35,750 nucleotides of DNA, taken from assembly GCA_022703155.1 (NCBI GenBank), contig JAKLEH010000010.1:1-35750 (forward strand), written 5' to 3'. This stretch comes from Patescibacteria group bacterium. GTDB taxonomy: Bacteria > Patescibacteriota > Patescibacteriia > 2-12-FULL-60-25. Positions 14,956-34,653 of the stretch are shown in pieces. The position numbers and the translations under genes are program-made. Below the pieces are notes generated by a model. The model ran no database searches. It was not told the DNA's origin and saw only the letters and a program-made list of their open reading frames with translations. Numbering within the stretch: the first letter of the stretch is position 1; each line of letters begins with the position of its first letter.

Positions 14956-17900
14956 TCACGGCGCTCCACCTCCTTCCGTGGTTGTGGTCGTGATTTCGGG
15001 CATTGCGGTCGTATCGGTTTGTGTCGACATATTCGTGTCGGTTACTGGTTCGGTTATGGGCTCGGTTGAAGTGGGCGTGACGCCGGAACCGTCCAAAGGC
15101 TGTTCAACGGTCGTTTCTGGCGCAACGCTCGTAGTTGTCGGGGTTTCGCTGGGAGTGACGGCCGGCGCTTCAACCGTTGCCGGTTCAGCGTTGCCGGAAG
15201 TGCCCGATTCGGTCGTGGTCGCGGTTTCAACGGACGGAGTCGTGGTCGGAGCGGCACCGATGAGCGGCACTGTGCCCGTGGCCGCAGTTTGTGACTGCAA
15301 ACCCACGGCCATCCAGTTGAACTTCATGGTGCGTCCGCAATTGGTCGGGTCCACGCACGCGCCTTCGTCCACGTAAATGCGGAAGCCGTTGATCGTCTTG
15401 TTGCCCACGCGGAACCTGCCCATCCACGGTTGGAAGTATTCCTGCGCGTCGGATTCGGGAGTCACGACCACGACCGGAACGGCGTCGTAAGGCTTCACGA
15501 ATTTGACCTCCACGTACTGTTCTCCGGGCTTCAAATCCACCACGCCGGCCGTATCGTCGGACACGACCACGTGGCCCATGAGCCGCGTAGTGCCGCCCAC
15601 GGTCAAATCGCCGGCCACCAAAGCCGCGGTGCGCACAATAAGCGTTCCGACGTTCGCGGCATCGACGCCGCTCAACGCCGAACCGTCAGCCACCTGCGGG
15701 TTCACCAAACCACCAGCCACCTGTTGGATGGCGTAAGCGTCGCCTTGGAAAGCCTGTTGGATGACTTGCGTGGTCGTGGATTGGCCCAGATACGCCGCCA
15801 ATTGACCTACTGGGGTCGAATTGTCACCGAAGTAATAGCCTGTTTGGACGACCATCATGATGGTGCCTGTTGGCGCGTCGGAGGTCGGAGGTCGGAGGTC
15901 GGAGGTCGAGGAGGAGAATGATTCGAGGGCATGGCCGATGATCATGCCGGGTTGCGTGGCTTTCATGGCATGACCGGGCAATGAAGCCGAAGTCAACGGA
16001 TCGCCCACGGCAACATCGCCGTTTTCTGAACTGATTTTTACCGGAACGCGACCGACCAAGGCCACGGGGCGCGAATCGCCGTCCTTGGGGCCAGAAAGCG
16101 TGAAGCCAGCTTTGGTGGAAACCACGCCTAATACGTTCTTGTCGTTGGCGCCATTGGATTTGCGGATGAAACCTGGATTAAACTCGTCTAGAGCGACCAC
16201 GTCTCCGGCGCGCAGCGACGCGTCTTGCGTGGGATATTGCTCCGCCAAGTCATAAGCTCCCGCATCCGTGACAATGCCGTGCGAAAAATTGAACGCGCCG
16301 ATTTGATATTCGTATGGCGTGCCCTCGCCCTGATAATTATAGGATTCGTTCGAGAACCACATGGAACCCGTGGACGAGCCGGCTTGCATCAAAAGATCGT
16401 AAGACGCGGTACGGGCTTTTTGGTAAGACCAAACTTGGCCATGGCCCGTGGCGTTACCGCGACCGGCATACAACCTTCCATTGAACGTCGCAAAGGCGTA
16501 AGTGGCTTCGAAGCCTGCACCGTTGGCCGTGGAGGTAGTGAAGGATTCACGATATTCCACGATATCGCCGTCACCCGTGGCGCCTTCGTACCCAAAGAAG
16601 AGCGCACCATCGTAAACCGTCATGGACGGAACGCGGGTGATGGTGCCGCCATTATTCACTACCGTGGTGAAATCTGCGGTGTTATCGCACAAAGTGTCGT
16701 CACCGGCGGCTTGGGGTTCGCAACGTACAACGTCTCCATCCGTTGCCCCTTTACCCTTGCCCGTATACAAGTATCCGTTATAGACGGACGAACTCTCGAA
16801 GGATTCATAAACATATCCGCCGCCCGCGTTGTTCAAGACGCGCGTCCAGTCGTTGGCATTATCGCAACGTTCGGGATCGCCGGCGACCGATGGAGTGCAG
16901 GCGAAAACGTCATCATCGGCATTGGAACTGCCAGTCAAAGCGTACAAACGGTTGAGGTACACCACCAAAGTCGGAACCTCTTCATAGGTGGTTCCTCCCT
17001 GGAGGGCGATATTGGTCCAGTCGGCCGCGTTGTCGCAGTCGTTGGCGTTGCCGCCGCCCGCCGGGTTACAGACGCCCACGGACGCGCCGCCCGCCACACC
17101 CGTATCGTTGGCCGCATACAGATAACCGTTGTAAACCACCAATTGCCTTATCTGTTGCGGACCCGCGGGAAAATTGGCCGTGGCCCAATCGGCGGCGTCG
17201 CACAGTGTCGCCGTGCCATTCTGTTCCGGGCGGCAATAACGGACAATGCCCAAACCAGCTCCGTTGCCTTCACCTTCGTATAAACGACCGCGGAATGCCG
17301 TGATGGTGTTAACGCGCGTCGCGGCCGCGTTGTCCAACGAAGTCGACCAGTCGGCCGCGTTGTCGCAGTCGTTGGCGTTGCCGCCGCCCGCCGGGTTACA
17401 GACTTTGACGTCACCATCGCCGGCGTTGTCGCCTTGGCCGGCATACAAATAGCCGTTATATGCATATAAGGAACGGACGGATTCAATGCCGACGGCGCTT
17501 AAATTAGTATTTGACCAATTGGCCAAACTCTTGTCAGGCGCGCCTTGGATGGAAACACGCCCGTTGACCGTAAGTTTGGACGTGGGCAAAGTCGTGCCGA
17601 TGCCCACGTTGCCGGAGGACGTTATGCGCATGACCTCCGTGGCCGCCGTCGTATCACCCGCATTTGCGCGGACCGTAAACGATAGGCCGCTAGCTTCCGC
17701 GCCGTTGGTCGCGTTTTCCCAAATGGCGCTCAAACGCCCTAAGAATTCTTTTTGGCCCGCCGAGTCGCTGGCGAAGAACAGATAAGACGGCCCGGAACCA
17801 GCCGTAGCCGGATTGCCCATGATGCCAATCTGCATGGCCGCCTGCACGCCGCCCACACCCAGAACATTGCGTGCCATGATACCCGCGGAAGTGCTGGACA

Positions 17901-19587
17901 CGTGGATCGGACCCAACGGATTGCTGGTGCCTATGCCCACATAACCGTTGGTGCTGATGCGCATTCTTTCCGAACCGGCGCGCGAAATCGTGAAGGCCTC
18001 ATTGGCGGACTTCGCGAGATCCCAACTCGAAGTGGCGCCCACATGCGTATTGTACGACCAAACATCGGACCAACGATACGCACTGGACCCCAAAGCATAC
18101 AAATTGTTTGACGACGGGACAAGATTGCCGCTCGATGTCGCACCCGCGAAATTTATCCATTTGTCGGTCGTCGCGCCCTTGATCGTGACCTGTTGGAGCG
18201 TGGGTACGCTCGTAGTCACGGATCTGCCATTGATGTAAATCGCGGAGGAAGAGACGTAACCAGAAGCGTATATATTGGTGGTGGTCGCATTTTTTACTAC
18301 GAGTCCCAACCAACGGTAAGTCGCGCTGCCCAAACTATAAGAATCCGTAGTCATGGGCAACAAACTCGAATTGACGCGACCCAACAAGGCCAAATTGGTG
18401 CCGGTCGCGTTGATGAAAAGAGCCATGTCCGTATCCAACAACCCCTGGATTTTGACGTTAGAGGTTGAAGTCGCACCCGCGAATTGGACGCGGCGGTTGG
18501 TCGTGGCGCCTTGGTACGTAACCTGTTGCCAAGTCGGGACCGAAGTCGTGACCGATTGGCCGTTGACGATCAAATTGGTGGTGGAGACCGTGCCCGCATT
18601 GACCGTCGTAGCCGAAACGTTGGTCGATGTCACGCTGACCGCGTATACGCCCTTCCAACGGTAACTCGCATTGCCCAATACGTAATTATTGTCGATGCGT
18701 GGCAAAAGATTAGAATTGACATAACCCAAGACGGCCAGATTCGTACCCGTGGCGTTAACAAACAACAAGCGACTGGTCGAAGCCGTGCCCAACACATATA
18801 AATTGTTGGACAAGGTTGCGTTTGTGGCCGAGGCGTTGGACAAAGTCGTTTTACCGACGACGTTCAGCGTTCCGCCTACGTAAACATCGCCTTGTCGGTT
18901 GACGTTGAAGACGTCCGCAGCGCCGTTCGAGAGGCGCATCAGATAATCGTAAACATTGGACGTGCCTTTGGTCTCCACATATAAAGCCGTGCGTGTGGCG
19001 TTGGCCGCATCGGACGAGGCTTGGCGCAAACCAAACAGGTCGCCGCCCGTGTTGGCCACGGTGTGCGACGCGTATTGCCCCTGCAACGTCTCTGAATTGA
19101 AGGCGTACGGCACGGCCGAGAGGCGCTTGCGCGGAGCCATTTCGCTATCCGCGCCCACGGTCACGCCCAGATACAAAGTATCGTTATTGAAAAAGTTTTC
19201 TGGGAAAGCCACCTGGCCCGCGGCCACGTCTCCCAACAGCAGGCTGAAAAGGCCGTTTTTGATTTGGACGGATACGGCGGCCGGGGTGCCGGTGGGCAAA
19301 CCGTTGGTCGTACTCGCTGACCAGAGTTGGAAACCGCCCGAAGTCTGGGAGTATAAGCGGAACTTGATTTGGTACGTGCCGTCAGTTACCGGATTGCCCG
19401 ACGAATCCATGAGCTTGCCCTGGTAGTTCACCGCACGGTTGATTCCAGTGGCCGCGTCAACTTCCGGGACCGCCATCCCAAAAGCCGACGTAGCCGCCAA
19501 AATCAACGCACAAACAACAAAAAGCACTTTGCTTAAGACAAGTTGCTTTTTTTCCGTCTGCGGGGAATGTTGGCGGACATTCTCCAT
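14956..19587 (-). CDS. giant secreted surface protein with propeller and tail-fibre-like modules (1543 aa)
   Basis: A signal peptide occupies about residues 18-46. The N-terminal domain (NYQGKLMDSSGNPVTDGTY ... RKRLSAVPYAFN, about 50-170) is a module common in secreted CPR proteins. Residues 170-690 are Ser/Thr/Asn-rich beta repeats with tail-fibre signatures (VGIGTSNP, NVGIGTTLPTSKLTVNG). Residues about 700-1060 hold seven repeats of YNGYLYAGxG...GDGDV...C...CDNAADW, suggesting a seven-bladed propeller with paired cysteines. A region like the IMC/Peptidase_G2 tail domain follows (YDLAEQY, LRAGDVVALD, about 1085-1245), then a beta domain (1325-1420) and a Thr/Pro/Glu-rich tail. No LPXTG motif is visible. 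An adhesin or fibre role is inferred. No Shine-Dalgarno precedes ATG 19587. Confidence 0.9.
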   Translation of the reverse strand: MENVRQHSPQTEKKQLVLSKVLFVVCALILAATSAFGMAVPEVDAATGINRAVNYQGKLMDSSGNPVTDGTYQIKFRLYSQTSGGFQLWSASTTNGLPTGTPAAVSVQIKNGLFSLLLGDVAAGQVAFPENFFNNDTLYLGVTVGADSEMAPRKRLSAVPYAFNSETLQGQYASHTVANTGGDLFGLRQASSDAANATRTALYVETKGTSNVYDYLMRLSNGAADVFNVNRQGDVYVGGTLNVVGKTTLSNASATNATLSNNLYVLGTASTSRLLFVNATGTNLAVLGYVNSNLLPRIDNNYVLGNASYRWKGVYAVSVTSTNVSATTVNAGTVSTTNLIVNGQSVTTSVPTWQQVTYQGATTNRRVQFAGATSTSNVKIQGLLDTDMALFINATGTNLALLGRVNSSLLPMTTDSYSLGSATYRWLGLVVKNATTTNIYASGYVSSSAIYINGRSVTTSVPTLQQVTIKGATTDKWINFAGATSSGNLVPSSNNLYALGSSAYRWSDVWSYNTHVGATSSWDLAKSANEAFTISRAGSERMRISTNGYVGIGTSNPLGPIHVSSTSAGIMARNVLGVGGVQAAMQIGIMGNPATAGSGPSYLFFASDSAGQKEFLGRLSAIWENATNGAEASGLSFTVRANAGDTTAATEVMRITSSGNVGIGTTLPTSKLTVNGRVSIQGAPDKSLANWSNTNLSAVGIESVRSLYAYNGYLYAGQGDNAGDGDVKVCNPAGGGNANDCDNAADWSTSLDNAAATRVNTITAFRGRLYEGEGNGAGLGIVRYCRPEQNGTATLCDAADWATANFPAGPQQIRQLVVYNGYLYAANDTGVAGGASVGVCNPAGGGNANDCDNAADWTNIALQGGTTYEEVPTLVVYLNRLYALTGSSNADDDVFACTPSVAGDPERCDNANDWTRVLNNAGGGYVYESFESSSVYNGYLYTGKGKGATDGDVVRCEPQAAGDDTLCDNTADFTTVVNNGGTITRVPSMTVYDGALFFGYEGATGDGDIVEYRESFTTSTANGAGFEATYAFATFNGRLYAGRGNATGHGQVWSYQKARTASYDLLMQAGSSTGSMWFSNESYNYQGEGTPYEYQIGAFNFSHGIVTDAGAYDLAEQYPTQDASLRAGDVVALDEFNPGFIRKSNGANDKNVLGVVSTKAGFTLSGPKDGDSRPVALVGRVPVKISSENGDVAVGDPLTSASLPGHAMKATQPGMIIGHALESFSSSTSDLRPPTSDAPTGTIMMVVQTGYYFGDNSTPVGQLAAYLGQSTTTQVIQQAFQGDAYAIQQVAGGLVNPQVADGSALSGVDAANVGTLIVRTAALVAGDLTVGGTTRLMGHVVVSDDTAGVVDLKPGEQYVEVKFVKPYDAVPVVVVTPESDAQEYFQPWMGRFRVGNKTINGFRIYVDEGACVDPTNCGRTMKFNWMAVGLQSQTAATGTVPLIGAAPTTTPSVETATTTESGTSGNAEPATVEAPAVTPSETPTTTSVAPETTVEQPLDGSGVTPTSTEPITEPVTDTNMSTQTDTTAMPEITTTTTEGGGAP
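15880..15915. repeat. GGTCGGA heptad repeat inside a coding region
   Basis: About four tandem copies of GGTCGGA stay in frame in the surface protein and encode STSDLRPPTSD. The same word is otherwise intergenic in this window. Confidence 0.85.
17017..17403. repeat. 57-bp identical direct repeat in the propeller region
   Basis: Positions 17017-17073 and 17347-17403 are identical over 57 bases and encode CNPAGGGNANDCDNAADW in blades 1 and 3. Identity at the DNA level points to recent duplication or gene conversion. Confidence 0.9.
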
Positions 19588-23590: not shown

Positions 23591-26500
23591 TCAAGCCGTT
23601 TCTTTTAACGCAGCCGGACTGGTCTTCTTCAGATAATCGTCTATGGTTTGCGCAATTTTGGCATAACCCGACTCATCCACGTTCTGTTCGATGAAGTTGT
23701 CATGATTTTTGAATTTGGCGTTCAATCCTGGATCGATGATTTTGAAATTTTGCTTAAATTCGCCAAAAGGCATCAATGCGCCGCCCTTAAAAGCGGAGTC
23801 ATGGAAATTCTTGAACGCGACCAACACATTGCCGCCGTTTTGCAGGATGAAGTTCTCCACGCCCAAACCGCCCAAACCCTTTTCGAGCTTTTTATAGGCT
23901 CCGGCCTCTTTGAAGATCTTCTTGGCCAAGACTATATTGGCCTGAACTTCTGACCTGGTGGCTTCATCCATACCGTCCAAACGTTCTTTGACCGCGTCGT
24001 GCGATTCATAAACCGCCAAATCGGATTTGGACACGAATGCCACGTCGATCTCTAAATTTTGTTGACCATTTGGCAATTTCCCATCCTTAAGCCTCAATTG
24101 TCCTTCATGGCTGCCGTTATCCGTGCCGTCAAAAGACTTCATGATGGCGTTTTGGATATTCACGGCCTTGGACATGTCCTTAGGATTGAGTTTGAGCACC
24201 AAATCAAAATCATAAGCGCCCGGCACGTTGGTCCCGCGTCCCGTGGAACCCGTATCCACCAACTCCGGACGCACCACGATGTCCTGGTCGCCTCCGTAAG
24301 TTTCTATGCCCGCTTCGGCCAAGGCTTGGAATATCCGGCGGTTGATATCACGGCTGATTTCGGCGATGGATTCCCTTTCCGCCACTTGCCCCTGCTTAAT
24401 TTTATCCAATTCCTTGACATGACCTGGCGACACTTCAAAATTCGGCTGTTGGAGTTCAAAGGCCTTGCCGCCCAAGCGTTCCAATCCCGCATTATACTTT
24501 TCCAAATAGCGCTGGTAATCCTCTGGAGTGAACAGGATTTTGCCGCTGCGGTCCGCGACCGGAATGTAAAATCCGTTCTGCACCACGTCCATGCACATGC
24601 TATCAAACGCCCTTGTGTCGGCGGTTATCTTATCGCCGACGATCAAGGCATCCACTTCGGTCATGGGAAAGCCGGTCCGGATGCCGTAATGCCGCGCCTG
24701 GTCCACGGTTCCGGAATGGAAAATCTCCAAAACCGGTTTGCGGTCGCGGGCTTTTTTGCGCAACTCTTCGAGATCGCTGGACGACGACGTTTCTTGGAAC
24801 TGCCCCCTGTTCCTGACCAAGAGAGCGACCTCGCCGTACTCTTTTGCCGGCATCAATTGGAAAGCTTGCGCAAAGCCCAAAGCTCCGTCTTCCGCGGTCA
24901 CGCGGCCCATGTCCGTATCCAGCGGCGTGGCGTCAGAATCCGAGCTGGCGCCTAAAAACTCCTTGGCCACCGAACCGTTTTGCATGATGTGTCTCAAATA
25001 TCTGTCATTCACGCCCTTGAACAAATCTCCTTCGTGCAGTTCCAATTGTCCGGAAGCGGCCAATTGAGCGTTGCGCGTGCCGGCTTCGGCTTTGGCCTCG
25101 TCCATGCGGTCCAAAACCTGCTGCATATTCTCGTATCCTAACGGCCGCAAAAACATTTCGGCCAAACGCTGATTGACGGATTGGTCTGGCGTTACGCCCA
25201 AATTCTCGCGCCACGCTTCATATTCCTGTTTCAAATCCTCGCTCGATGCCGTTTCGCCGCCTTGGGCGCGCCCCAATAATGAGTTTTCGTACAGCAATTT
25301 AACTTTGTTCAAAAACGACCTTAGGGTTTTCTTTTGGCCTTCGTCCAAATGTTCCACGCCCTTTTCGTCGGCTTGGGCCATGATGCCTTCGCCTTGCTGT
25401 AAAATCTCGATGTATTGCTTCAAGGACGGATTGCCCGAATCGATGTGCGCATGCAACAAATCCTTGTAGATGGTCAGCATGCGCCCGCGGTGCCGCTCGG
25501 CGCGCAAAGTCGGGCTCAAGTTTGTTTGCGACAGCTTGGCGTCCAGGGTTTTTTGCGGATGCAACAATTCGAAAACCTTGAAAACCTTGCCCACGGACGG
25601 CAGATTGTTGCGTAAAAATATCGCCTCGACCTTGGCATATGTGCCTTCCGGGTCTTCGCTGGCGGAAACCTGGTCGGCCAGCTGTTCGGACATCTTTTGG
25701 ATCTCTTGGGACGGCGAATTTACGATTTTTTTGAAGACCGACAAAAAAGCCAAGGCACGCTTCTCGTCGTAACCAAAAATCTTTTCGAACGAAGTGGACG
25801 CCAATTTTTGGAACAGGTATCCGGCGAATTCGCGGGCCTGCTTATACCTTTGCATGAAATTTTGCCGTTCTTCGGAAGTACCCTCGAGCAATTTTTTGGC
25901 CATGGCCGGAGCCTTGTCGTTCACCATGGTGAACGCAAACGGTTCGCGGTCCGTTATCTCCCGCACCCGCGAAGCGAAGTTTTTGGCCGTAGCCACCGGG
26001 TCCTCACTGGCGAACGCTTGGCCAATCCAATCTGCGGCCATGGATTCGGAAATCGGCACTTCGCGGATCGCGGCGTACGCTTGGCGGAAAGCGTCGATTT
26101 TTTCTGGTCCGCCATCCATCACCATACCCATCAAATCGTGTTTATTGGTCCATATCCGACTAAGCGCGAGCACCAAATCCACATTGCTCCGCATCCGCGA
26201 CAAAACCTCGGGCGCCTTGAGCTTATGCGCACCAAAAAGTTTTTCAATTTGGTCGCGTCCGCGATTCAAGCGGTCGGCAAACGTATCAAGAAGTTTGTCT
26301 TTAAGACGTAACGCCTGGTCTTCCGTTAACATCAAGCTGTCCAAATTTTCCAAAAGCGTAAACGGCCGCTCTTGGAGCGCCTGATTGAAAATTTCGGCCT
26401 GCTGTTCAGCGTCCAACGGAAAATGTTCAGCGTTGTTGCCCGCCAACAAAGCCACGGGGTTGTCTTTCATCAGCGTGGCGATCAAAGCGTCGCCCGAACG

Positions 26501-28207
26501 CCCCATGCCTTGTTCGAATTTTGCGAATTCCTCCGCGTTCAAAGGCACGTATTGGAGGCGGTGGTACAGGTACCCCAAATGCCTATGCGAATCGTCCAAA
26601 AACGCGGCCTTTATCCTGGCTTGTTCCCGCTGCGGCAGGGCGGCATAATCATCTTTAAAAAACCCTGCGTTCTGGATGATTTTTTGCGGCTCTTGTTGCT
26701 TGTAGGCGCCGAACAACATTTTCCTGACGCCTTCATGCATGGATTCGGGAAAGTCATTTACGTCAAAACGCGCGGCCGCGGACAAGTGTCCGTTTCGTTC
26801 GACGATGGAGCTAAGCAGCTCAAAACGCTCCTCCGCGTTCCAAGCGTGGCGCGTGTAAATGCCGCTCGCCTGGTCCACCAAAGCCTCCGGGGCATGGGCC
26901 AGCGCCAACTTGATGCGGTGCCGCCTTTCCTCAAAATCGACCGTGTCGGATGCGTCCTTTTCCGCCTTTTGATAAAGCAGGTTTTGCAGTTGGCGCAAAT
27001 TCGGGGCGCCTTCAGGCAATTGGCGGTAGAGTGCGATCCCAGACTCCAAACTGACGTCCAACAACTCCTTGGTTTTCGCGACCAACAATTCGCCGAAATA
27101 TTTTCCTCCGGGATAAAAGAAAGTTTTTTCCAAAGCCGGGTTACTGACGCATAAGCGAGCGGCTTCGGCATAATCGTCTTTGGCCATGGATTCGGCCATC
27201 CGCCGTTCTCCGCGGCGATTGCGCGCGTATTCCAACCCGTTATCGAACCACGTCAGCCTTTCGGCCATGGCTTGTGGCGAAAAACTGCGCGTTTTCAAAA
27301 ACTCCTCAAACCGTTTGCGCCCCTGCCCCGGCATGTCGAGTTCGAGTTCGGTCGTTGCTTCCGCTGCCATATCCGCGGCCATCTCGTCCAACTTCACTTT
27401 TCCGGCCACTTCCAAAGACAAAGCCGGGTCGGACTTCAGAGAGTCGAGCGTTTCCCGTTGTTGTCGAAATCTCAACCATTCGCTTTCCGAAACCACATCA
27501 CGCAAATCCTTGCCCGACCGAAATTCTTCAGCGTGCCTCTCGAAAGCGTCATTCAATTCGTATACGCACTGTTCCGCGGCGTCGGCCAAATCCTCTTGGT
27601 TGGGGGCTTTGGGCGCGTATTCTTCCTTGCTGTGATCCCATTCTAATTTGTGAGCCACGTAAGCCAACCTCATGCCGATGCGTTTGGCTTTAGCCCGCAG
27701 CCAATTGGCCTTGGCCCGCGTGGCGCCGGCCGCAACCGCCTCTTTGACTTCGGCCATGGCTTGGTTGTATTCGGCTTCGATGTTTTTATGTTCGCTTTCC
27801 AAAGCGCCAACTTCCATGGAATCGTAACGAGAAAAATCCTCGCCCTCGTCAACGGCTTTCCGTTGGTCATGCCCCTGTCCCTGGAGCTCCGCTTGGGCGT
27901 GACGGATTTCGGCCGCGGCTTGTTTGGCCTGATTTTCCAAGGCCGCGACCTCCTCCGGCGCGGCGCCGGCTTGTGCCGCCTGCCCGATGGCCGCTTCGGT
28001 TTCGTTCAATTCGGCCTTGGCCTGTTCCAAATCCCGTTCGACCATAACCTCGGCCGCGGTTTCCGCGTTCTCGGCCGCGCCGCTTTCGGGCTTGATTTTG
28101 AGCGTGCCGCGGGCCGTGTATTCCGGGCCTTCAGACACGATCTTCAAGGACCCGCGCGTTCCATACGGAGGCGTAGGAGGCGGGCCAACGAATCTATTTT
28201 CGTCCAT
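23591..28207 (-). CDS. giant helical protein with C-terminal nucleotidyltransferase domain (1538 aa)
   Basis: Residues 1-200 are Ala/Glu-rich coiled coil; about 200-1080 are helical and unrecognised. About 1160-1240 is a distinct block (HYGIRTGFPMTEVDALIVGD, NGFYIPVADRSGKILFTPED) whose family I do not know. About 1290-1480 is a Pol-beta-type nucleotidyltransferase: GSTGRGT (1320 on), metal Asp pair in YDFDLVL (about 1333/1335), third Asp in LEIDVAFV (about 1388), and a helical partner with KIFKEAGAYKKLEKGLGGLG. This arrangement is nearest to archaeal CCA-adding/OAS-type enzymes. Nucleotide transfer is probable; the acceptor is unknown. No signal peptide or membrane segment is seen. ATG 28207 is chosen because the earlier ATG (28231) abuts the -10 box and would precede transcription start. 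Confidence 0.85.
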   Translation of the reverse strand: MDENRFVGPPPTPPYGTRGSLKIVSEGPEYTARGTLKIKPESGAAENAETAAEVMVERDLEQAKAELNETEAAIGQAAQAGAAPEEVAALENQAKQAAAEIRHAQAELQGQGHDQRKAVDEGEDFSRYDSMEVGALESEHKNIEAEYNQAMAEVKEAVAAGATRAKANWLRAKAKRIGMRLAYVAHKLEWDHSKEEYAPKAPNQEDLADAAEQCVYELNDAFERHAEEFRSGKDLRDVVSESEWLRFRQQRETLDSLKSDPALSLEVAGKVKLDEMAADMAAEATTELELDMPGQGRKRFEEFLKTRSFSPQAMAERLTWFDNGLEYARNRRGERRMAESMAKDDYAEAARLCVSNPALEKTFFYPGGKYFGELLVAKTKELLDVSLESGIALYRQLPEGAPNLRQLQNLLYQKAEKDASDTVDFEERRHRIKLALAHAPEALVDQASGIYTRHAWNAEERFELLSSIVERNGHLSAAARFDVNDFPESMHEGVRKMLFGAYKQQEPQKIIQNAGFFKDDYAALPQREQARIKAAFLDDSHRHLGYLYHRLQYVPLNAEEFAKFEQGMGRSGDALIATLMKDNPVALLAGNNAEHFPLDAEQQAEIFNQALQERPFTLLENLDSLMLTEDQALRLKDKLLDTFADRLNRGRDQIEKLFGAHKLKAPEVLSRMRSNVDLVLALSRIWTNKHDLMGMVMDGGPEKIDAFRQAYAAIREVPISESMAADWIGQAFASEDPVATAKNFASRVREITDREPFAFTMVNDKAPAMAKKLLEGTSEERQNFMQRYKQAREFAGYLFQKLASTSFEKIFGYDEKRALAFLSVFKKIVNSPSQEIQKMSEQLADQVSASEDPEGTYAKVEAIFLRNNLPSVGKVFKVFELLHPQKTLDAKLSQTNLSPTLRAERHRGRMLTIYKDLLHAHIDSGNPSLKQYIEILQQGEGIMAQADEKGVEHLDEGQKKTLRSFLNKVKLLYENSLLGRAQGGETASSEDLKQEYEAWRENLGVTPDQSVNQRLAEMFLRPLGYENMQQVLDRMDEAKAEAGTRNAQLAASGQLELHEGDLFKGVNDRYLRHIMQNGSVAKEFLGASSDSDATPLDTDMGRVTAEDGALGFAQAFQLMPAKEYGEVALLVRNRGQFQETSSSSDLEELRKKARDRKPVLEIFHSGTVDQARHYGIRTGFPMTEVDALIVGDKITADTRAFDSMCMDVVQNGFYIPVADRSGKILFTPEDYQRYLEKYNAGLERLGGKAFELQQPNFEVSPGHVKELDKIKQGQVAERESIAEISRDINRRIFQALAEAGIETYGGDQDIVVRPELVDTGSTGRGTNVPGAYDFDLVLKLNPKDMSKAVNIQNAIMKSFDGTDNGSHEGQLRLKDGKLPNGQQNLEIDVAFVSKSDLAVYESHDAVKERLDGMDEATRSEVQANIVLAKKIFKEAGAYKKLEKGLGGLGVENFILQNGGNVLVAFKNFHDSAFKGGALMPFGEFKQNFKIIDPGLNAKFKNHDNFIEQNVDESGYAKIAQTIDDYLKKTSPAALKETA

Positions 28208-28231
28208 AAGTTTGTCGAGGTTATGGCACAT

Positions 28232-31261: not shown

Positions 31262-31267
31262 CATTAG

Positions 31268-31385
31268 TCCGGCAACGGGCTACTCTTCCAGGACCGGGTT
31301 GGGTCCAAGTACCATCGCTGCTGAAGGGCTTAACTTCTGTGTTCGGGATGGGAACAGGTGTGACCCCTTCGCTTGAGTCACCGGC
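31268..31385 (-). rRNA. rrf: 5S ribosomal RNA
   Basis: The minus strand contains the conserved core CCCATCCCGAACACAGAAG and CGATGGTACTTGG, closed by CCGGTGA/TTGCCGG. Length is about 118 bases. It is the last gene of the 23S-5S unit. Confidence 0.95.
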
Positions 31386-31617
31386 TTCTCGTCACGAACT
31401 CGTTCGCGGGGAAAAGTCGATGCTCACTCGTCGTAGTTTCGAGCGACGAGTTACGAGTTTCAAGACTGACGCCTCACTCGCAACTCGAAACTAGAAACTC
31501 TAAACTGTAATAAGATCACACGTACAAGGCATTGTTAGCCATACGCAACTTTCTTTGAGCCATCCGACGTACGATGTTACATGATCAATGATACATGTTA
31601 CATGTCCCACGTCGGAA
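31386..31617 (-). other. 23S-5S spacer with processing stem arm and microrepeats
   Basis: Positions 31510-31554 are largely complementary in the transcript to 34695-34737 in the 23S leader, forming the long stem that RNase III-type enzymes cut. The rest is low-complexity words (ACGAGTTACGAG, CTCGAAACTAGAAACTC at 31426-31507; ATGTTACATG at 31573-31606). Confidence 0.75.

Positions 31618-34653
<3,036 letters not shown>

What the first reader, a model, noticed from the sequence alone, without database searches (positions are those of the whole stretch)
23591..28207. 1538-residue protein with a CCA-adding/OAS-like nucleotidyltransferase at its C-terminus
A Pol-beta-type catalytic core (GSTGRGT, DFD, third Asp in LEIDVAF) with a GLGGLG-type helical partner caps some 1100 residues of helical sequence and a second conserved-looking block (HYGIRTGFPMTEVDALIV, GFYIPVADRSGK). 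I know no described family with this architecture. The nucleotidyltransferase could modify RNA ends, AMPylate proteins or make a nucleotide signal. A single-pass membrane protein is encoded directly downstream and a small basic protein divergently, making a candidate three-gene system.
Basis: partly seen in the sequence, partly recalled or inferred. Interest (0 to 1): 0.75.

Follow-up and report, generated by a model that had tools for sequence, protein, structure and literature searches.

The report
Large protein pairing two RNA-enzyme folds
A 1546-residue protein of an ultra-small bacterium joins two predicted enzyme folds, one like the ADP-ribosyltransferases that act on RNA and DNA and one like the archaeal enzyme that adds CCA to tRNA, in a scattered family that no database describes and that probably modifies RNA ends.

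Summary
ORF 23591-28231 (-), 1546 aa, is a real gene with about 40 relatives in Patescibacteria and in Saccharibacteria, Bacilli and Clostridia, several of them from gut samples. No Pfam or NCBIfam family covers it. The conserved part is the last 720 residues; the first ~820 diverge about twice as fast. The three catalytic Asp are kept in 39, 40 and 39 of 40 members. In the ART-fold domain the usual His is Lys in 34 of 39, but another polar set (E1091, D1100, T1102, D1105, D1107, R1185) is invariant.

The three-gene system is not supported: neither small neighbour recurs, and neighbours are mostly housekeeping genes. The genome has its own class II CCA enzyme, so this is not the housekeeping one. 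In gut Bacilli the module sits in giant proteins beside ADP-ribosylating-toxin and peptidase-like domains. Best guess: a dual RNA-modifying effector used in conflict or host interaction. Folds are well supported; substrate and role are inferred.

The parts
23591..28231 (-). whole gene, 1546 aa (or 1538 aa from the in-frame ATG at 28207)
   Evidence: ORF; relatives of 1368-1895 aa with aligned C-termini; gene-like codon-position GC
25760..28231 (-). variable N-terminal region, residues 1-824; no known domain
   Evidence: 9% mean column identity across 36 relatives; no Pfam match for this protein; no TM segment in the 39 fetched relatives; diverges about twice as fast as the C-terminus
25043..25759 (-). 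conserved all-helical module, residues 825-1063 (SPSxEIQR..NNLPxxGKV..DLLxxH)
   Evidence: alignments A2 and A4; helices in the model
24482..25036 (-). ADP-ribosyltransferase-fold domain, residues 1066-1250
   Evidence: domain modelled alone at pLDDT 88.2; best PDB matches S. cerevisiae Tpt1 (VIA Z 8.8, 108 aligned of 120, 3.0 A) and DarT (Z 7.1), other leading rows almost all ARTs; weak profile match of the KG..IMQNG stretch to E. coli KptA HGT..IKKQG
25016..25018 (-). K1072, at the place of the ART motif-I His (K 34, R 3, H 2 of 39)
24911..24961 (-). E1091 to D1107 (E..SDxTPxDxD); E1091, D1100, T1102, D1105 and D1107 invariant in 39 of 39
24677..24679 (-). R1185 (GIRTG), invariant in 39 of 39
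23618..24436 (-). class I CCA-adding-like nucleotidyltransferase: catalytic plus central domains, about residues 1266-1538
   Evidence: VIA Z 17.6, 224 residues, 3.1 A, 19% identity to A. fulgidus CCA-adding enzyme 4x4o residues 2-250; Foldseek E 6.7e-6 to 1r89
24203..24250 (-). catalytic motif GSTGR..DFD (G1328-D1343)
24044..24046 (-). third catalytic Asp, D1396
   Evidence: 39 of 40 members
23804..23923 (-). helical-partner signature K1437..Y1446KK..GGxGGxGVENWIL..A..F1476
   Evidence: mostly invariant in 40 members

Best explanation
The gene encodes a large, probably soluble protein with an enzymatic C-terminus of two parts: an ART-fold domain related to the RNA/DNA-acting branch (Tpt1/KptA, DarT), and a template-independent nucleotidyltransferase related to the catalytic and central domains of archaeal class I CCA-adding enzymes. 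I think the nucleotidyltransferase is active, with metals on D1341, D1343 and D1396, and adds nucleotides to the 3' end of an RNA, most likely tRNA or a tRNA fragment, while the ART-fold domain binds or modifies the same RNA or its end, possibly with NAD. The fast-diverging N-terminal part selects the partner or trigger. The likeliest role is an effector in biological conflict or host interaction, either released into a partner cell or kept inside as a stand-alone response protein. Supported here by sequence and prediction: ORF, family, folds, conserved catalytic residues, joint occurrence of the two domains. Inferred: activity, RNA substrate, NAD use, role.
For: Confident model of residues 825-1546 (pLDDT 88.5, pTM 0.86). 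Nucleotidyltransferase fold closest to class I CCA-adding enzymes, backed by sequence: TIGR03671 in 19/40 members, best 2.2e-4; PADLOC oligonucleotide-cyclase models in 15/40, best 8e-6; OAS2 in the PDB by profile, E 0.0084. Catalytic Asp kept across two very divergent clades. ART fold nearest Tpt1 and DarT, with ART-only relatives that keep the motif-I His. In 380 sampled genomes of the phylum the nucleotidyltransferase was found in 7, each time in a long frame also carrying the ART-fold domain. Effector-like company in gut Bacilli: the module lies in one frame with a PF03496 ADP-ribosyltransferase exoenzyme domain and C39- and transglutaminase-like domains (>=6816 aa, L073/L074), and with PF03496 in a 3021-aa protein (L053). 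Patchy distribution, fast N-terminus, sheep-ileum Saccharibacteria nested within the Bacillota clade. Both kinds of chemistry occur in toxins and defences: MenT extends tRNA acceptor ends (PMC10435456, PMC11541572); CmdT ADP-ribosylates mRNA (PMC11618068).
Against: No activity data. The ART-fold domain lacks the usual motif: Lys for His in 34/39, and the only candidate Glu (E1192) in 26/39, so it may not use NAD. No signal peptide, transmembrane segment or secretion gene was found, so export is a guess. Immediate neighbours are mostly housekeeping and show no shared defence genes. No relative in phages, plasmids or IMG/VR. The tRNA-gripping body and tail domains of CCA enzymes are absent, so a tRNA substrate is not implied by the fold.
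Confidence: 0.4

Rival explanations
1. RNA repair enzyme: the ART-fold domain clears terminal phosphates as KptA does, and the nucleotidyltransferase rebuilds the damaged 3' end, for example of tRNAs cut by ribotoxins.
For: The two folds are those of two tRNA end-processing enzymes, Tpt1 and CCA-adding enzyme. No Tpt1/KptA (PF01885) match was found in this genome.
Against: KptA's His is replaced by Lys in most members; no RNA ligase or other repair gene recurs next to the gene; present in few genomes per clade; a class II CCA enzyme is already present; the fast-diverging N-terminus is unlike a repair enzyme.
Confidence: 0.2
2. Nucleotide second-messenger synthase in the manner of CBASS CD-NTases or OAS, switched on by the large N-terminal sensor.
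For: PADLOC cyclase models match 15 of 40 members, best 8e-6; OAS2 and cGAS are the top PDB profile hits; CdnE and cGAS are among the Foldseek hits.
Against: No effector or accessory gene of CBASS type recurs next to it; class I CCA enzymes are the closer fold, Z 17.6 against 14.9 for DwCdnB.
Confidence: 0.17
3. Protein-modifying enzyme: AMPylation by the nucleotidyltransferase and ADP-ribosylation by the ART-fold domain, of a target bound by the N-terminal region.
For: Both superfamilies include protein modifiers; CteC, which modifies ubiquitin, is among the ART matches, Z 6.5; the module is joined to other effector-like domains in Bacilli.
Against: The nearest nucleotidyltransferase and ART relatives act on nucleic acids.
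Confidence: 0.13
4. Housekeeping tRNA CCA-adding enzyme of the organism.
For: Class I CCA fold with intact triad.
Against: The genome has a class II CCA enzyme (PF01743, E 7.5e-16, over cut-off); the one tRNA gene in the window encodes CCA; the eight same-genus genomes searched have no match to it; body and tail domains missing.
Confidence: 0.02

Closest known systems
Archaeal class I CCA-adding enzyme (A. fulgidus, PDB 4x4o/1r89; TIGR03671)
   Same: Catalytic plus central domain fold over 224 residues (Z 17.6); GS..DxD..D carboxylates; conserved helical partner.
   Different: No body or tail domain; joined to an ART-fold domain and a long variable N-terminus; first carboxylate is Asp where AfCCA has Glu59 (PMC3925840); all TIGR03671 hits far below cut-off; found in bacteria, and this genome has its own class II enzyme.
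tRNA 2'-phosphotransferase Tpt1/KptA (PF01885)
   Same: ART-fold NAD lobe: 108 of 120 residues of the solved yeast Tpt1 chain aligned, Z 8.8; short profile match HGT..IKKQG against KGV..IMQNG.
   Different: Motif-I His is Lys or Arg in most members; an invariant E..D.T..D.D..R set of its own; no PF01885 match; a helical module precedes it instead of a recognised winged-helix RNA lobe.
DarT and other nucleic-acid ARTs (CmdT, RhsP2)
   Same: ART fold (DarT Z 7.1); nucleic-acid-acting members occur in toxins and defences.
   Different: No antitoxin gene recurs beside it; fused to a nucleotidyltransferase; unusual motif residues.
CBASS CD-NTase / OAS / cGAS
   Same: Pol-beta-type nucleotidyltransferase with helical partner; weak profile hits.
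   Different: No CBASS operon; CCA-like rather than CD-NTase-like in fold ranking.
MenT nucleotidyltransferase toxins
   Same: Proposed chemistry: adding nucleotides to tRNA acceptor ends to stop translation (PMC10435456, PMC11541572).
   Different: Small toxins with an antitoxin gene; direct homology not tested here.

Membership tests
Class I CCA-adding enzyme | Nucleotidyltransferase and central domain fold | tested here: met
   VIA Z 17.6, 224 residues aligned to AfCCA 2-250
Class I CCA-adding enzyme | Three catalytic carboxylates | tested here: met
   D1341 39/40, D1343 40/40, D1396 39/40
Class I CCA-adding enzyme | Body and tail domains that bind the tRNA acceptor and elbow | tested here: not met
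   The protein ends at the equivalent of AfCCA residue ~250 of about 440
Class I CCA-adding enzyme | TIGR03671 score over the curated cut-off | tested here: not met
   11.3 bits for the window protein against a cut-off of 281.3; best E 2.2e-4 among members
Class I CCA-adding enzyme | Adds C, C and A to tRNA | not testable with these tools
   needs an enzyme assay
ART superfamily | ART fold | tested here: met
   Leading VIA rows are almost all ARTs, best Z 8.8; Foldseek best E 0.0099
ART superfamily | Catalytic H-Y-E or R-S-E motif | tested here: inconclusive
   Motif-I position is K 34, R 3, H 2 of 39; candidate Glu E1192 in 26/39; positions inferred from sequence, not from superposed coordinates
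Tpt1/KptA | PF01885 match and motif-I His | tested here: not met
   No PF01885 hit for the window protein in Pfam scans; Lys at the aligned position
CBASS | CD-NTase beside an effector gene, often with accessory genes | tested here: not met
   No recurring effector or accessory gene
CBASS | CD-NTase family match | tested here: inconclusive
   PADLOC cyclase models hit 15/40 members, best 8e-6; NF041117 hits one member
Polymorphic toxin or secreted effector | Secretion signal or trafficking domain | tested here: inconclusive
   No TM segment by a simple hydropathy scan of the relatives; dedicated secretion predictors were not available
Polymorphic toxin or secreted effector | Immunity gene next door | tested here: inconclusive
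   None recurs in Patescibacteria; six gut Clostridia loci share a small gene just downstream with no Pfam match in the two scanned
MenT toxin family | MenT-type nucleotidyltransferase with MenA antitoxin gene | not tested
   only the chemistry is compared

The most novel reading that the evidence does not exclude
A new class of bifunctional RNA-modifying protein in which a divergent ADP-ribosyltransferase and a CCA-type nucleotidyltransferase act on the same RNA end, used by episymbiotic and genome-reduced gut bacteria as an effector against their partner cells, with a diversifying N-terminal recognition arm.
Probability: 0.2. Interest if true: 0.85.

Novelty: new variant of a known kind. Interest (0 to 1): 0.62.

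Why it matters
How Patescibacteria and Saccharibacteria act on their partner cells is largely unknown. A conserved two-domain enzyme with an intact nucleotidyltransferase site gives a concrete, testable candidate. It would also be the first ART fold joined to a class I CCA-type nucleotidyltransferase that I found in the databases and literature searched here, and an occurrence of an archaeal-type CCA fold in bacteria outside housekeeping.

Tried and rejected
Relatives sought with the single C-terminal sequence in genome contigs: none confirmed; the alignment found 39. Relatives L006 and L007 match only a weak N-terminal stretch; L007 (as L022) does not align in the C-terminus; both were dropped. 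Phage, plasmid and IMG/VR searches: nothing. PHROGs: only weak single-member hits. Three-gene system: rejected, no match for either small neighbour in the relatives' loci. Housekeeping CCA enzyme: rejected. Defence-island context: PADLOC hits among 134 neighbours are single hits or general families (mad, PD-T4-6, DndA/SspA-like), not a recurring system. Viral fold library: best row 2.4e-4 to an uncharacterised Caudovirales protein with rmsd 26 A, not informative. Internal-repeat scan of N-termini by self-BLAST printed nothing, although N-terminal BLAST between L049 and L068 shows off-register matches that suggest repeats. A KptA set for a better profile comparison could not be gathered from viral contigs.

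Full report
1. Observation. Shuffled windows give stop-free runs of at most 279 codons, and the ORF's codon positions have gene-like GC. A TATACT sequence lies directly before the ATG at 28231, so either start is possible. Pfam and NCBIfam have no significant match.

2. Relatives. BLAST of whole genomes found real relatives in 5 of 144 near genomes including its own (G000, G022, G023, G051, G100; two further weak matches were dropped) and in 8 of 380 genomes spread over the phylum. A profile scan of GTDB contigs gave 39 loci: many Patescibacteria lineages, two sheep-ileum Saccharibacteria, and Bacilli and Clostridia, several from gut samples. The Bacillota assignment is supported by Bacillota-type neighbours: two YunB matches among the neighbours (L049 and L054 share one neighbour family), PolC beside L049, EzrA beside L068. 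A tree puts 11 Bacillota and the two gut Saccharibacteria on one side (100/100) and the other Patescibacteria on the other; L050 (Saccharibacteria) pairs with L049 (Erysipelotrichaceae) at 93/83 and L052 also lies inside, which suggests transfer between them, though the rooting is for drawing only.

3. Anatomy. The last ~720 residues align across the family; the first ~820 do not. In close pairs the C-terminus is 63, 62 and 59% identical while the N-terminus is 32, 33 and 24%. No transmembrane segment was found in the relatives. AlphaFold of residues 825-1546 with 40 sequences gave pLDDT 88.5 and pTM 0.86: a helical module (825-1063), an alpha/beta domain (1066-1250), and a nucleotidyltransferase with helical partner (1266-1538).

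4. Nucleotidyltransferase. Foldseek's best PDB hit is the archaeal class I CCA-adding enzyme (1r89, E 6.7e-6); VIA-align gives Z 17.6 over 224 residues, 3.1 A, 19% identity, above poly(A)/poly(U) polymerases (16.6 and less) and CD-NTase DwCdnB (14.9). Independent sequence support: TIGR03671 in 19 of 40 members, PADLOC cyclases in 15 of 40, OAS2 by profile at E 0.0084. Catalytic residues are essentially invariant. AfCCA uses Glu59, Asp61 and Asp110 (PMC3925840); here all three are Asp. The CCA enzyme's body and tail are absent.

5. Middle domain. Folded alone (pLDDT 88.2) it matches ART-fold proteins: yeast Tpt1 Z 8.8 (108 of 120 residues), DarT 7.1, archaeal Tpt1 6.9, CteC 6.5; Foldseek's best E is only 0.0099, so the relation is remote and rests on the consistency of the list. 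hhalign aligned 29 residues with E. coli KptA (P-value 0.025): KGVNDRYLRHIMQNG with HGTASRFLDEIKKQG, which puts K1072 at the motif-I His. K is found in 34, R in 3 and H in 2 of 39. Two ART-only relatives, in G219 (L029, 710 aa) and G625 (L075, 536 aa), have His there and keep the Glu of TE[IV]. E1091, D1100, T1102, D1105, D1107 and R1185 are invariant, so the domain has a conserved site of some kind.

6. Association of the two domains. In 380 genomes of the phylum the nucleotidyltransferase profile hits 7, each in a long frame also hit by the ART-fold profile; the ART-fold profile hits one more.

7. Context. Neither small neighbour of the window gene has a match in the relatives' loci, and no neighbour family recurs in more than three Patescibacteria loci. 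Neighbours are largely housekeeping (tRNA synthetases, CTP synthase, ribosomal L9, SecDF). In six Clostridia loci a small protein of 118-164 aa recurs just downstream; two of these were scanned and have no Pfam match. In a genome of the same family as L049, the module lies in a frame of at least 6816 aa together with C39-peptidase-like, transglutaminase-like and PF03496 ADP-ribosyltransferase exoenzyme domains; L053, 3021 aa, also carries PF03496 after the module. This is the main ground for an effector-like role.

8. Function. The genome has a class II CCA enzyme and the window's tRNA-Ala gene encodes CCA, so a housekeeping CCA role is very unlikely. The nucleic-acid leaning of both nearest relatives, the conserved triad, patchy distribution, fast N-terminus and effector company make an RNA-modifying conflict or host-interaction protein the best guess (0.4). 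Precedents for each chemistry apart exist: MenT on tRNA ends (PMC10435456, PMC11541572), CmdT on mRNA (PMC11618068), Tpt1/KptA-like enzymes on RNA 5'-phosphates (PMC11833690). Repair, signalling and protein modification remain open.

9. Novelty. The domains belong to known superfamilies; the combination was not found in Pfam, NCBIfam, PADLOC, PHROGs or the literature searched. The literature library holds open-licence papers only, so absence there is weak. I rate it a new variant of a known kind.

Noticed in passing
window 31617-34652 (-) and 31267-31385 (-): Bacterial 23S and 5S rRNA genes; the ORFs listed over them are not genes.
   Followed up: no
window 14956-19587 (-): A 1543-aa protein of nearly the same size as the target, with weak fibre/adhesin-like matches (mosaic adhesive trimer N-terminus E 0.0022, H_lectin 0.094).
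   Followed up: no
L073:1-20000 and L074:1-451: Open frame of at least 6816 aa in a gut Bacilli relative, with repeated C39-peptidase-like units, a transglutaminase-like domain, the ART/nucleotidyltransferase module, an HExxH motif and an ADP-ribosyltransferase exoenzyme domain; it starts beyond the contig end.
   Followed up: partly
L043:1-5277: A frame with a second nucleotidyltransferase domain (residues 6-273) ahead of the full module; it begins at the contig edge.
   Followed up: no
L062:9102-11521 and L064:7752-11641: The module is split into two ORFs, helical part and ART/nucleotidyltransferase part; either two subunits or a frameshift or stop.
   Followed up: no
L056:3525-3947, L057:12258-12614, L058:12218-12712, L060:12261-12635, L062:11527-11919, L064:11668-12126: Gut Clostridia loci share a 118-164 aa gene just downstream of the module, with no Pfam match in the two scanned; a candidate partner or immunity protein.
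   Followed up: partly
L046:12277-16371: A 1365-aa protein with a Ser/Thr kinase domain directly downstream of the module gene in a Roizmanbacteria genome.
   Followed up: no
L068:6320-9985: The N-terminal region shows recurring stretches like 'FKEKYPxLFLKxDAPxELKxxFY', seen by eye; BLAST to L049 gives off-register matches.
   Followed up: no
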